Positions 42,001 through 51,000 of a stretch of 64,000 bases of DNA are shown here, piece after piece. The number at the start of each line of letters is the position of its first letter. Within the stretch, counting starts at the first letter, position 1. The notes under the pieces are model-generated. The model was not told where the DNA came from. It saw only the letters and a program-made list of their open reading frames with translations, and made no database searches. Position numbers and translations under genes: made by a program. The DNA comes from Paragorgia papillata (Eukaryota > Cnidaria > Anthozoa > Scleralcyonacea > Coralliidae): the NCBI GenBank assembly GCA_035771165.1, contig JAWNZC010000473.1:3231001-3295000 (forward strand), in the 5' to 3' direction.

Positions 42001-45000
42001 AATCTTTGATAGCTTTGCCAAACAGCTTATTTCTTTCATCATTCCAGCGAGCTTGTTTACTCCAAGGCAACGGTTTTCGTACCAGATGGGCTCATTTGGA
42101 TTTGACCAGCTCCTCTTCGGAAACTGAAAAAATGCACTGCATTTTGGATTGAGCTTTGAAAGATAAAGTCGGAGAGAATTGTAACCATCGCACGAATCGT
42201 GGGTTTGGTACATACGGCCTTCTTTTTCAAAACTTTTGTCGTCAATAATGCCGCCAGGGTGGTTTTTTGTCGCTTCATCATGGGCCATTGTCGCGAACGG
42301 TCTTCCGTTTTCGTCTTCCAAAAATTTAAAACTGGACCTCGTCAGGTTTCTTTGGCCTTCACGTCCCCTACGACACCAGAAAAGAGTGGTATGAAACCAA
42401 ACATTTCTTAGGAGACCGAGTGGAGTGGAGGGAGAAAGTATGCCGCTTTCTTTTAGCTTTTGAAGGTCTTGGGATTCGATGGCAGGTTTGTGCTGAACAC
42501 TTTGTTTTCCTTGTTGTTTGAGTTGCTTTATTTTGGCATCAAGCATCATGTTAGATCTTTTAAATGCAGGATTTGTTGATATTGTAATCCCTTTGTTGTG
42601 AGGAGAGAGGTTTAGGTATCTTTCGATGCCGTTTCTGAAACAAAGCAAAGTGCTTTTGCTGTATTCCTCGCCATTTTTATTTCTTGCCTCAGCGTAAAAA
42701 TGTCATAGCATTTCGTCAAGTTCTTCAATGGTAAGTTCATGCAAGTTTTTGAAAGAATGTTTGGTAGCTGCCCATTCTAAGCAAAAAAATATTAATTTTG
42801 CTGTTTAATTTAAAGTGTAAATGAGATATAAAGATGTTTATATAGCAGTATTTTGAAGGAACATAATATTGCAATAGAATAATTTTTGACAAAAAGCTCA
42901 ACTTTGAGCACAAAGACAAATTCAAAAATAACTTATGTGCCTTATAAATATAATATATTTATTATCTTATCCTGTGAAATAATAAAAAAAACTTACCTTC
43001 ATAAACAGAAACGGCGTATTTCGTTGCATATTTAGTAGATTTTGATTGTGCTCCGTCTAAAAGACCGTCAAGTTCATTACCGCTCAATGCCGCAAAACGT
43101 TTCGTTTCTTTTGTAGTTTCTTCGGAGAGTGTCTCAGACACGTCCAGTGTAAAACTTGGAATATTTCCCTCGTCATTGTGCATTAAAAATGTAAAAAAGT
43201 TTTCCAAAACGAGTCAATTGAAATGCAAGTAAACTAACTTTTGAAAACATTTGGAAAAAAATTGGCGGCGCTGTGACGTCACAACCGTGTTTACATAGCC
43301 TGATATAAACACAGTAATGGACCAATCACAGCGTACGTAAGACCCAACTTATTTTATAAATATATATAATACACTATTTTATAAAATAGGTTGCGTCTTA
43401 CGCACGCTGTGATTGGTCAATTACCGTGTTTATATCAGGCTATGTAAACACGGTTGTGACGTCACGGCACATTTTTTAGCCTTATTTCATAAAAGAAATA
43501 GAAAATGGATGCCCTGTGTTTATATAACCTGATGCAAACACTCGAGTGAGTTGGGAGAATTCGAAAGTAATTATGTAAACCCTCGCCTACGGCTCGGGTT
43601 CACATAAACTTTCGAATTCTCCCAACTCACTCTCGTGTTTGCATCAGGCTATATAAACACGGGCGGCCATTTTCTATTTCTTAAATAGTATACAAAATTT
43701 TAAATAACCATGCCTCTTGCTGTGGCAAAGTTGTCAATGCAATTCCACCAAGTTATCTTATGTAATTATGTTATGACAAAATGACAAGTATAGAGATAAA
43801 AAAACTGTACAGCAATGTACACCATTGAGTCTATCAGATTATTTTGCAGAATTTGTACAAGTAACATATGTTCTAAGACGACATAGTGTCAAATCGACGC
43901 CTAGAACAACAGTCCGTATAAAATGGCACGACAGCACAAGCTTGTAGCTTAAAATCCTTAAATTATTTTAATATACTTGAAGCTTTGTACCCAAGCTTGA
44001 CCATAAATTAATACCGTACTACGGATTGCGCAATATGCGAACATCCAAACATCCAAACTCAAAATCGAGATATCGACTATACATAGCTCGGTAAATGGAC
44101 TGGGCACGAGTAAGGACATAGGGAACCCCAAACGAACGTCAAGAATAGTGTGCTGCCTCGCTGACGCTCGGTAGCAAAAAAGCCTGTAATCTTTGAGATT
44201 ACACCCCCCCCCCCCCGGCCCTGGGGGACCATGCCCCATAAGTGCATTTTCGGCGATTTCTGCGAGGAATTTTCCAAACAATTAATCCGACACTGCTGCA
44301 TTAAAAGCAAAAATAAAACATTTTGTTTTTATGATTTGGGTGAACACAAAAAGGTTAGTCCAACTGCTATACCTGAGATAATACAGGTCTTTTGACAATA
44401 CACTTCAACTTCATTGTTTATATCCCGCCGTTTGACAGATAAAACTTCACGATGGACTGGGCATCCGCAAAAACGGTAATTTGACCGTGAGCAAAAGGCC
44501 TGGGACAAGCAGAAGAATAGAAATCCATTTTCGTACCTTTATTAATTACCTGTTGTATGGTGGCCGATAGCTGCCATTCGAGATTTTGAATTAAATGGCA
44601 GCAATCTATGCACTTTTTTACATTTTTTATATATATCTTTTATAATTTTTTTTTTATGTGTTTTTTTATTGATGTTTTATTTATTTATTTTTTATATTTA
44701 TTTTATTTTATTTTTTATATATTTTTTTTATATATTTTAATTTTTATGATTCTACTTTACTTTAAAAAATTAAACAAAAATAAAAAAACAAATAAAAAAC
44801 CCCCAAAAAAACAAAAAAAACGAAGGCAGTTTCCGGCCATGTGGCCGACGACTGCCGTTCGTTTGCACGACCGAGAGTGCCTGGAACTAGCTAAAGAACG
44901 TTTTCCAAAATGGCGTATTACAGGAATGACTCTTGGAAGGAAGACTTGAGTCTTAAAAGTGACATGGAAAATTATGTAAAGCAAATGCTTCAACGGAAGG

Positions 45001-48000: not shown

Positions 48001-51000
48001 CAATGAACCCCTCAACTGTGACAAATTCTCCCTTGTCTGTCTCTCCATAATAGATTCTGCCATATTTGGGCACTTCTCCAAAGGAACTGTCAGTGTTCAG
48101 TTCCTTAACTTTTTGTTCCAGTTGTAATGAAAAATTTCTGGCCAACACGTGCATTTGCACAGTTTTTCGTGTGTGTTCCTCAGCAGTTTGGCCAATATCT
48201 TCTATTCCTTTAATAGTGGTAGGGAGGTATCTCTTGATAACCCATACTCCACTGTACATTGGCTGTTTTGAAGTGGCTTTAAAGGCTTTTCGGAAACCTC
48301 CTTGAGCAAAATGTTCTTTTTCTTCAAAAAATTCAACCACAGTTGGGATATTTGACCAAGTAAAGCTTTCAATGTCATACTGAAAAATGTTTACAACGGT
48401 ACTTGATGATGATGTGGCTTTGTTGAACTTGCCTAGCTTGATCATTTCAGCGACAGAAAGGCTAACTGGATACACTGATTTCGCAGGACTTGATGGACTC
48501 TCCTGGCCCTGGTCTTTACTTGAACCTCTAGCCTTGGGTGACAGGCATTCAGATTTCGTTCTACTGCAAAAAGGCTTTTTTCTAGGTGGTACATGAGATG
48601 ATGAAGCCGTGGCGGAATTATAACTTTTCTCGGTGTCAAATTTATCTTCATCGTCAATATCATCAATAGTAAATCGATTGATAAATCGCACGTGGATAAC
48701 TTTCAATGATGAAAAACGTGATGAAAAATATTTCTCACGTGAACGTTTTATTTTCTCAATAGTCAGTTCCTCTTGGGAATCAAAAGGCACGAACTCTCTG
48801 GGGCCTACCCTTGTATATTTCTGGGCCTTCCCACTGACGTCAGACGATAACCTTTGGATTGTCAACTCACTGCCTTGCAGCTTTCTCTCGCGCTTGTCTT
48901 GTGAGGTCGTCTTATTCACCCGTTTGTCTTTCATTTTCTCTTTGAAATCCATCCACGAACGCTTCGCCATTTTGGAATGAATTAGACTTCGTCCCTTCTG
49001 GTCAGCGGAACGGCAGTCGTCGGCCACATGGCCGGAAACTGCCATTGGATTTTTTTTTATTTTTTGTTACTATTTTTTTTTTTTTTTTTTTTTTTTTGTT
49101 TAATTTTTTAAAGTAAAGTAGAATCATAAAAAATAAAAATATAAAAAAAAAATATATATATATAAAAAATAAAATAAAATAAATATAAAAAATAAATAAA
49201 TAAAACATCAATAAAAAAACACATAAAAAAAAAATAATAAAAAATATATATAAAAAATGTAAAAAAGTGAATAGATTGCTGCCATTTAATTCAAAATCTC
49301 GAATGGCAGCTATCGGCCACCAACGTTCTGTATTTTTTTGGAAACTATTTGAAACTTCGTACCAATATTAAATGATGGACAGCTATATCCAGTTCAACGA
49401 CGACTGACTATTTCCCAATAAATACGTGAAAATGACGGAATGTCGAAATCCCCATAAAGGGCATCCGACATCGACTCAGGGGCCCCCCTGTGACAGGGCC
49501 CCCCCAGCTCTTGCTGGGCAGCGCCTATAGGAGTTACGCCACTGCTTTGAGATGATTAAATCATGGCGCTCGAATCGTAAGCTAACGTTTTAGTATCATT
49601 GGGTGGACTCTTACACACACATGCACAGTTTCACAATTTCGTTACATAATCCATCTAGACAGGCTTTTTAGCAAATAATTACACAATTTGACGTCAAAGT
49701 GACGACATTTACAATATCAAACAAATCTTAATTATATCAAAAACGAAGTGAAATATGAAAGAGTTGTAAACGCACCAATATTTAAAATTTGTATGTTTTT
49801 TTCAAGCAAACGAGTTTATTTCAAAGCGAATTTTACACTGCATATTAACCACTTTAACATATCAAACATCCCAAATTCCCAATTCGGTCCCAAGTGATAA
49901 ATTAATAAAATTATACAAACCTCCTTTTTGAGAAAACGCTGGTATTTCAAAGTCTAATTCAAGGATTTTCACACTTGCCGATGCTGATTTAACAACTTGC
50001 CTGTTAAGATCCTAAAATACAAGAAAAACAGTGACTGAATAAACTAAACTAGAGAGCAGTTAGAGACTGCATATACCTCCGCCAGCGGGTTATTAGAGAT
50101 GTTTAAAAAGAAAACGAACCATCCCGCTAACCAGGTTAGCTCACAAGACCAACACATGCATGTATGAATAAAATGCTTGATTGCACTCGTACCAAAATTA
50201 TGCAAAAATATTTGCATAAAATAAGGATAATAAGCGCAATCAAGCATTTCTTCTACACAGATAATCTTTCGGTCAGATTTTTATTAATTTCCCATTCAAA
50301 TTTTGACTAAATTCAACCAAAATTTAATGGATTGGTCGTTGGTATATGCCAACCCTTCTGCAAACTTTCATGAAAATCGGTGTAATATTTTTTGAGATAT
50401 CCGGGCGACAGACAGACAAACAAACCAACAGACTAACAGACAGACAGACAGACAGACAGACAGACAGACAGACAGACAGACAGACAGACAGACAGACAGA
50501 CAGACAGACAGACAGACAGACAGACAGACAAACAAACAGACAGACATACAGATAGACAGACAGACAGACAGACAGACAGACAAACAAACAAACAAACAAA
50601 CAAACAAACAAACAAACAAACAAACAAACAAACAAACAAACAAACAAACAAACAAACAAACAAACAAACAAACAAACAAACAAACAAACAAACAGAATGG
50701 GGTAAAAACATAACCTCCTGGCGGAGGTAATTAAACTAATTTTATTTATACTGGATTATATATATATATATATAATAACTGTTCCCCCTAGAGGTCCAGT
50801 AAGGGCCATCCCTTAATGGTCCAGTGTTACTACAGGAGAAAACCGGAGTACCCGGAGGAAACCTGCGGTGTTTGGTAGAGTCAAACTGGAACAGGAAGCA
50901 CTCTTCTCACATGCAGCCAAGGTGAAATTTTAATCAGATAACTGAACTGTGCAGGTATCGAACCTAGGTCGCAGACGTGAAAGGGCACGTGCGCTAACCA

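What the first reader, a model, noticed from the sequence alone, without database searches (positions are those of the whole stretch)
44558..49322. A DNA transposon that carries an alpha-kinase gene
Seen: TIRs of about 310 bp enclose two convergent genes, each starting at CCAAAATGGCG just inside a TIR. One is a DDE (retroviral-integrase-like) transposase. The other is an alpha-kinase with the [15 protein letters not shown] loop, the VIKRY Lys, [16 protein letters not shown], and [14 protein letters not shown]. Known: alpha-kinases (eEF2K, MHCK, TRPM6/7) are signalling enzymes and are not, to my knowledge, standard parts of any transposon. Inference: the kinase moves with the element and may act on host chromatin, translation or the transposase. 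It could explain scattered intronless alpha-kinase genes in cnidarian genomes.
Basis: partly seen in the sequence, partly recalled or inferred. Interest (0 to 1): 0.9.

Follow-up and report, generated by a model that had tools for sequence, protein, structure and literature searches.

The report
Transposons that carry an alpha-kinase gene
A jumping gene in what is probably a coral-like or anemone-like animal carries a signalling kinase beside its transposase at dozens of places in the genome, and a related jumping gene carries a ubiquitin ligase instead, which suggests that mobile DNA brings its own enzymes for modifying proteins.

Summary
The window has a 4.8 kb DNA transposon whose TIRs (91% identical) enclose a convergent DDE-type transposase and an alpha-kinase. 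This copy is decayed: the transposase is frameshifted and the kinase lacks an internal piece and its zinc-binding C-terminus.

It is not a chance capture. Eleven further loci fetched around kinase hits in the same genome all hold both genes; ten keep both ends (TATGG..CCATA), with 6-bp target duplications perfect in nine and 5/6 in one. Four copies are 98-99% identical, with open kinase frames. Of 71 closer transposase places 56 have a convergent kinase; of 75 more distant ones none do. Two distant-lineage elements read end to end carry a convergent HECT ubiquitin-ligase gene instead; by coordinates 32 of the 75 do.

Termini, duplications and transposase place it with IS3EU. Prior art: Kojima 2025 mentions alpha-kinase genes in fungal IS3EU, so the pairing itself is not new. 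Five searches of the held library showed no animal case and no HECT counterpart. The kinase's target is unknown.

The parts
44556..49322 (.). Whole element, a decayed IS3EU-type transposon of about 4.77 kb; left end TATGG intact, right end has lost its terminal TA
   Evidence: compare L009 with both ends and duplication GAACTC
44558..44860 (+). Left terminal inverted repeat
   Evidence: 287/315 identical to the right one
49008..49322 (-). Right terminal inverted repeat
44910..45639 (+). Transposase first exon, frame broken by a 17-bp deletion (relative to L009) at about 45352
   Evidence: rva_4 0.0044 for the second part
46069..46178 (+). Transposase second exon ([12 protein letters not shown].., presumed catalytic Glu); splice sites read by eye
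   Evidence: rva_4 0.08
46261..46430 (+). Transposase third exon; splice sites read by eye
   Evidence: rva_4 0.0052
47226..47419 (+). Probable last transposase exon, with an internal stop; read by eye
47786..48970 (-). Alpha-kinase, 394-aa open frame; lacks about 23 N-terminal-domain residues and the C-terminal zinc motif
   Evidence: PF02816 1.3e-28
45797..45840 (-). Extra 44-bp copy of the element end (GGTGGCCGATAGC..) inside a transposase intron, also in L009
   Evidence: 100% identical to 49278-49321; L009 4927-4973

Best explanation
A decayed copy of a cut-and-paste transposon of the IS3EU kind whose lineage has a stand-alone alpha-kinase as a stable second gene. Shown here: TIRs, TA..TA termini, 6-bp duplications, convergent kinase and transposase at many loci, near-identical recent copies, and, in family B, both start codons inside the TIRs. 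The kinase has an alpha-kinase domain with catalytic and zinc residues kept, plus a conserved N-terminal domain that Pfam does not name. Inferred: the two genes are expressed together from near-identical TIR promoters, and the kinase is kept because it helps the element spread. The most likely job is to phosphorylate host nuclear proteins of silencing or chromatin so that the element is expressed and can move (about 0.4 on its own; control of the transposase about 0.25, translation about 0.15, other about 0.2). The confidence below is for the identity of the element and for the kinase being a selected part of it, not for the target.
For:: 14 of 14 further loci fetched around kinase hits carry both genes, convergent; whole elements with 6-bp duplications at 10 of 11 (one 5/6); four copies 98.2-99.4% identical; 56 of 71 closer transposase places have a convergent kinase, 0 of 75 distant ones; kinase and transposase trees share the deepest split (H+I against seven others, 100/100 in both), so the pairing predates it; two families (L017 against L018, and against L019) have dN 0.30 with saturated dS, so the kinase was constrained along the lineage; catalytic residues kept in 80-81 of 81 relatives; 22 of 30 kinase loci have the exact end motif TATGGTGGC upstream (no shuffled control run); six contig lengths of 5 kb or more are shared between kinase and transposase hits from other assemblies, against 0.01 per shifted offset.
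Against: The window copy and L009 are both broken. 15 of 71 closer transposase places have no listed convergent kinase, and 30 of 87 kinase loci no listed convergent transposase (at least two of those 30 do have one). Distances of the two genes do not correlate within the seven closer families (r 0.007). Within families dN/dS is often near neutral (0.09 to 1.69, few changes). No nuclear location, activity or substrate is shown; basic clusters are only modestly above shuffles (4.14 against 3.81 and 3.89 against 3.02 in 70 of 81 sequences). Many copies are related, so counts are not independent.
Confidence: 0.8

Rival explanations
1. Neutral cargo: an element captured a host alpha-kinase by chance and it has been carried along without being needed.
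For: 15 of 71 closer transposase places have no listed convergent kinase; within-family dN/dS is often near neutral; the window copy and L009 are broken.
Against: The kinase is found across nine families with deep divergence and a shared deepest split, with open frames at many loci, conserved catalytic residues and dN well below saturated dS between families.
Confidence: 0.1
2. The kinase acts on the element's own transposase or its complex, timing or limiting transposition.
For: Strict convergent pairing with near-identical TIR promoter DNA and, in family B, start codons inside both TIRs; pairing with one transposase lineage only.
Against: No phosphorylation site or interaction was tested; kinase and transposase distances do not correlate within seven families, where close co-adaptation might predict it.
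Confidence: 0.25
3. The kinase acts on translation or stress signalling in the manner of eEF2 kinase.
For: The domain matches eEF2K (4.9e-9); one database relative is named eEF2 kinase.
Against: TRPM7 (2.5e-19) and MHCK-A (1.7e-11) match better; no other Pfam domain was found in the protein.
Confidence: 0.15

Closest known systems
Fungal TET-bearing IS3EU transposons with an alpha-kinase gene (Kojima 2025, PMC12730594; passages and section 4.1 seen)
   Same: IS3EU transposase, TAYGG..CCRTA termini and 6-bp duplications (given there for the rust elements), transposase and alpha-kinase genes in opposite orientation.
   Different: Those have a TET/JBP gene between the two and are fungal; here an animal-type genome, no TET gene seen by me in the elements read, a sister lineage with HECT. 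Whether the kinases share the N-terminal domain was not tested.
Alpha-kinases TRPM6/7, MHCK-A, eEF2K
   Same: Kinase domain with the same catalytic and zinc motifs; TRPM7 1ia9 aligned over residues 205-428 of P0125, 2.5e-19.
   Different: Pfam finds no second domain; a conserved N-terminal domain of about 120 residues without a Pfam name; carried by a transposon.
IS481EU, Ginger1, Ginger2 (PMC10045372, passages seen)
   Same: Related DDE transposases of the IS3/IS481/integrase group.
   Different: Their duplications are given there as about 4, 15 or 25 bp (IS481EU), 4 bp (Ginger1), 4-5 bp (Ginger2); here 6 bp.
HECT ubiquitin ligases
   Same: The sister lineage's second gene matches PF00632 (3e-8; 9.3e-11).
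   Different: Carried by an IS3EU-like transposon with TACGG..CCGTA ends; the ligase activity is not shown.

Membership tests
IS3EU | TA..TA termini (TAYGG..CCRTA in rust elements) | tested here: met
   10 of 11 further loci have both ends; the window copy only at its left end
IS3EU | 6-bp target site duplications | tested here: met
   6/6 at nine, 5/6 at one of 10 loci with both ends; two HECT elements 6/6; not seen in the window copy
IS3EU | IS3-like DDE transposase | tested here: inconclusive
   PF24764 below cut-off for split exons; sister lineage 9.1e-37, 1.1e-31, 1.3e-29 and 9.4e-29. Catalytic residues placed by eye; no Repbase IS3EU transposase was at hand for a tree
Ginger1/Ginger2 | 4- or 5-bp duplications | tested here: not met
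   6 bp
IS481EU | about 4-, 15- or 25-bp duplications | tested here: not met
   6 bp
Alpha-kinase | Pfam domain above the curated cut-off | tested here: met
   100.8 bits window, 120.6 bits P0125, cut-off 21.3
Alpha-kinase | Catalytic Lys, DxQG, Asp | tested here: met
   81, 81 and 80 of 81 relatives; present in the window kinase
Alpha-kinase | Zinc site (His, then HxC...C) | tested here: met
   81, 75, 76 and 74 of 81 relatives; the HxC...C part is missing from the window copy's open frame
Alpha-kinase | Kinase activity | not testable with these tools
   needs the bench

The most novel reading that the evidence does not exclude
IS3EU-type transposons have an exchangeable second-gene position, convergent to the transposase, that holds an enzyme which modifies proteins: an alpha-kinase in one lineage and a HECT ubiquitin ligase in its sister lineage (a TET/JBP gene sits beside the kinase in fungi). 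These would be counter-silencing or anti-host factors of eukaryotic transposons, and many alpha-kinase and HECT-like genes scattered in anthozoan genomes would be counter-defence genes of mobile DNA.
Probability: 0.35. Interest if true: 0.85.

Novelty: new variant of a known kind. Interest (0 to 1): 0.66.

Why it matters
It turns a class of scattered, variously named animal alpha-kinase genes into likely parts of a mobile element, which matters for kinome counts in corals and anemones. One genome offers a natural comparison of two transposon lineages with related transposases and different protein-modifying partners. Recent copies with open frames make the question testable: what does a transposon need a kinase for? 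If the answer is host silencing, it would be an animal counterpart of what Kojima proposes for TET genes in fungal elements.

Tried and rejected
Shared N-terminal domain of kinase and HECT proteins: alike by eye, but the profile comparison scored 9.6 against a mean of 12.5 for 100 column-shuffled controls, and the single-sequence comparison gave probability 0.6%. Rejected.

Virus link: a scan of viral contigs with the kinase profile found no relative.

C457 as an independent locus: its flank is that of L009; not counted.

Co-divergence within the closer families: not supported (r 0.007; 10,079 of 20,000 permutations at least as high). The overall r of 0.72 (202 of 20,000) rests on the H+I split.

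The 42% line between the transposase groups was drawn after seeing the table. The tree supports the split at 100/100, but holds 13 of 146 merged places. The Fisher value treats copies as independent and is not used.

Structure: structure prediction was busy at all 22 attempts, so no fold search was made.

Two broader paper searches (20 of 778 listed; 20 of 2,354 listed) gave nothing further on alpha-kinases in transposons beyond PMC12730594.
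Full report
WHAT IS THERE. The stretch 44200-49700 holds a DNA transposon of about 4.77 kb. Its inverted repeats are 44558-44860 and 49008-49322, 287 of 315 identical. A transposase starts at 44910 on the + strand and an alpha-kinase at 48970 on the - strand, both in the context CCAAAATGGCG. Pfam names the second Alpha_kinase (1.3e-28); three of four pieces of the first match rva_4, an integrase core, below its cut-off. 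The closest solved structure is the TRPM7 kinase (3.9e-9).

THIS COPY IS BROKEN. Against sister copy L009 on contig C456 the transposase lacks 17 bp. The kinase lacks about 23 residues that L009 and 14 of 15 aligned relatives have (the 15th does not reach that far), and its frame ends about 34 residues before that of relative P0005, before the zinc motif. The right end has lost its TA and no duplication is seen. L009 has both ends and a GAACTC duplication, but a kinase cut at its C-terminus and a one-base frame break elsewhere in its transposase. A partial copy at the end of contig C457 shares L009's flank and is not counted.

OTHER COPIES. The genome (617.9 Mb, 473 contigs, unnamed) gave 124 kinase matches (105 of 204 candidates scored), merged to 87 loci. 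I fetched stretches meant to span the element at 11 further loci (L009, L041-L050). All 11 have kinase and transposase facing each other. Ten have both ends TATGGTGGCC..CCATA; the flanking 6 bp repeat exactly at nine and in 5 of 6 bases at L044; the far end of L048 was not found. Four of them (C82, C337, C37, C145) are 98.2-99.4% identical over about 4.56 kb with open kinase frames of 428-429 aa from the ATG; one of the four, C82, matches the transposase exon in two pieces in different frames, so its transposase looks broken. In this family both start codons lie inside the 300-bp TIRs. Three more loci (L051-L053) hold a distant form with an intron in the kinase, also convergent with a transposase; one element end was found at each. 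Of 30 kinase loci with 1.5 kb flanks, 22 have the exact motif TATGGTGGC upstream of the kinase, two (L032, L040) have it with one base changed, the window copy keeps GGTGGCC, and five show none; copies of one family are among these, and no shuffled control was run.

HOW TIGHT IS THE PAIRING. The transposase exon of L042 gave 153 matches, of which I used the 150 listed (150 of 772 candidates scored), merged to 146 places. Of 71 with at least 42% identity, 56 have a convergent kinase within 12 kb, mostly 1-4 kb away, and 15 have none listed. Of 75 with less identity none has a convergent kinase, and one has a kinase nearby in another arrangement. Of 87 kinase loci 57 have a listed convergent transposase; at least two of the other 30 have one that the cut list omits. 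The 42% line was set after seeing the data, and copies within families are not independent.

THE SISTER LINEAGE. I read two of the distant places end to end, in joined neighbouring stretches. Both are elements with TACGGAGCCCC..GGGGCTCCGTA ends and perfect 6-bp duplications (CTACAC; GGTTTT), 8.77 and 8.46 kb long. Each has a transposase frame of 439 codons between stops (rva_4 9.1e-37 for the one scanned) and a convergent gene with a HECT domain (3e-8 for the one scanned; in the other copy that exon is frame-broken). With this HECT exon as query (122 matches, 121 of 227 candidates scored; 114 merged loci), 32 of the 75 distant places and 2 of the 71 closer ones (2.9 and 11.9 kb away) have a convergent HECT gene within 12 kb; 33 of the 114 HECT loci have a listed convergent transposase. 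I opened three of the 43 distant places without one: L062 has HECT by Pfam (9.3e-11), L061 has a stretch that looks like HECT to me but not to Pfam, and L060 showed none by eye in 8 kb; convincing element ends were not found for these three. In a tree of 13 transposases the nine kinase-lineage rows and the four others part at 100/100. I first thought that kinase and HECT proteins share an N-terminal domain; profile comparison does not support it.

EVOLUTION. Trees of kinase and transposase for nine families agree on the split of H+I from the rest at 100/100; within the seven-family group nearly all forks are unresolved (one kinase fork, window with L042, has 83/89), and distances there do not correlate (r 0.007; with all nine r 0.72). 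Between L017 and L018, and between L017 and L019, dN is 0.30 with saturated dS; within families changes are few and dN/dS runs from 0 to 1.69. In 81 relatives the catalytic Lys, DxQG and Asp are kept in 81, 81 and 80, and the zinc residues in 81, 75, 76 and 74. The N-terminal domain also has residues invariant in all 81; Pfam gives it no name.

OTHER GENOMES. The protein search listed 120 of 230 kinase relatives and 120 of 870 transposase relatives. Where a species is named it is an anthozoan (Exaiptasia, Actinia, Actinostola, Dendronephthya, Paramuricea, Desmophyllum; their class is from recall), but most rows have no name. Among contigs of 5 kb or more (59 and 63 distinct lengths) six lengths occur in both lists, against a mean of 0.01 for shifted lengths. 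I take this as kinase and transposase lying on the same contigs elsewhere; one is 5,348 bp, the size of one element. Those contigs could not be opened, and some may come from the window's own species.

PRIOR ART. Kojima 2025 (PMC12730594; passages, section 4.1) states that all TET-bearing IS3EU families, reported from fungi, hold the TET/JBP gene between transposase and alpha-kinase genes, which lie in opposite orientations, and gives 6-bp duplications and TAYGG..CCRTA ends for the rust elements. PMC10045372 (passages) gives TA..TA ends and usually 6-bp duplications for IS3EU. Searches: IS3EU with alpha-kinase, one paper, the above; alpha-type protein kinase with DNA transposon, none; alpha kinase or MHCK with IS3EU or GingerRoot, 10 papers of which none joins them; HECT, DNA transposon, IS3EU, GingerRoot, 146 papers, none of the 15 listed with both HECT and IS3EU; HECT domain with DNA transposon and terminal inverted repeat, none. 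Repbase itself, its reports and most subscription journals could not be searched, so an unpublished or Repbase record of animal cases is quite possible.

HOW IT LIKELY WORKS. The transposase cuts and pastes the element and leaves 6-bp duplications (inferred from anatomy). The two genes face each other from near-identical TIR DNA, so joint expression is likely (inferred). The kinase is kept over deep divergence, so it most likely raises the element's success (inferred). I favour action on host silencing or chromatin at about 0.4: Kojima proposes that the TET genes of fungal elements help escape from silencing, the kinase fragment of TRPM7 is reported to act on chromatin (recalled; only a listing seen), and the sister lineage has a ubiquitin ligase in the same position. 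Possible nuclear signals are only modestly above shuffles. No target is shown.

VERDICT. A real, recurrent mobile element with a kinase gene; the window holds a broken copy. A new variant of a known kind, with the kinase/HECT contrast between sister lineages as the part most worth following.

Noticed in passing
L054+L056+L058 (C354:6713700-6726000), L055+L057+L059 (C322:9718000-9730300): IS3EU-like elements of a sister lineage with a convergent HECT ubiquitin-ligase gene, TACGG..CCGTA ends and 6-bp duplications.
   Followed up: partly
window 45797-45840; L009 4927-4973: An extra 44-bp copy of the element end lies inside a transposase intron in both family-A copies, so it predates their separation; a left-end-to-internal-end unit could in principle be cut out on its own.
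   Followed up: no
L061 542-1807 (+) and 7165-7815 (-): The transposase begins with a zinc-ribbon-like stretch (Zn_Ribbon_1 4.2e-5, below cut-off) and the convergent gene's first exon begins with a similar CxxC..CxxC stretch by eye; perhaps a first exon shared through the TIR.
   Followed up: no
C456:204203-204889 (L037): A kinase copy 94% identical to that of L026 over 290 residues lies in an open frame of 1,975 codons.
   Followed up: no
C88:1356557, 1383118, 1413329 with kinase pieces at 1358267, 1384828, 1415039: Three transposase-kinase pairs with equal scores about 27-30 kb apart, which suggests duplication of a larger segment.
   Followed up: no
window 52052-53674 (+), 59058-61740 (+), 22696-23964 (-): Other mobile-element-like frames: by eye a non-LTR reverse transcriptase, a hAT-like transposase and a Penelope-like frame with a GIY-YIG-like end; not searched.
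   Followed up: no
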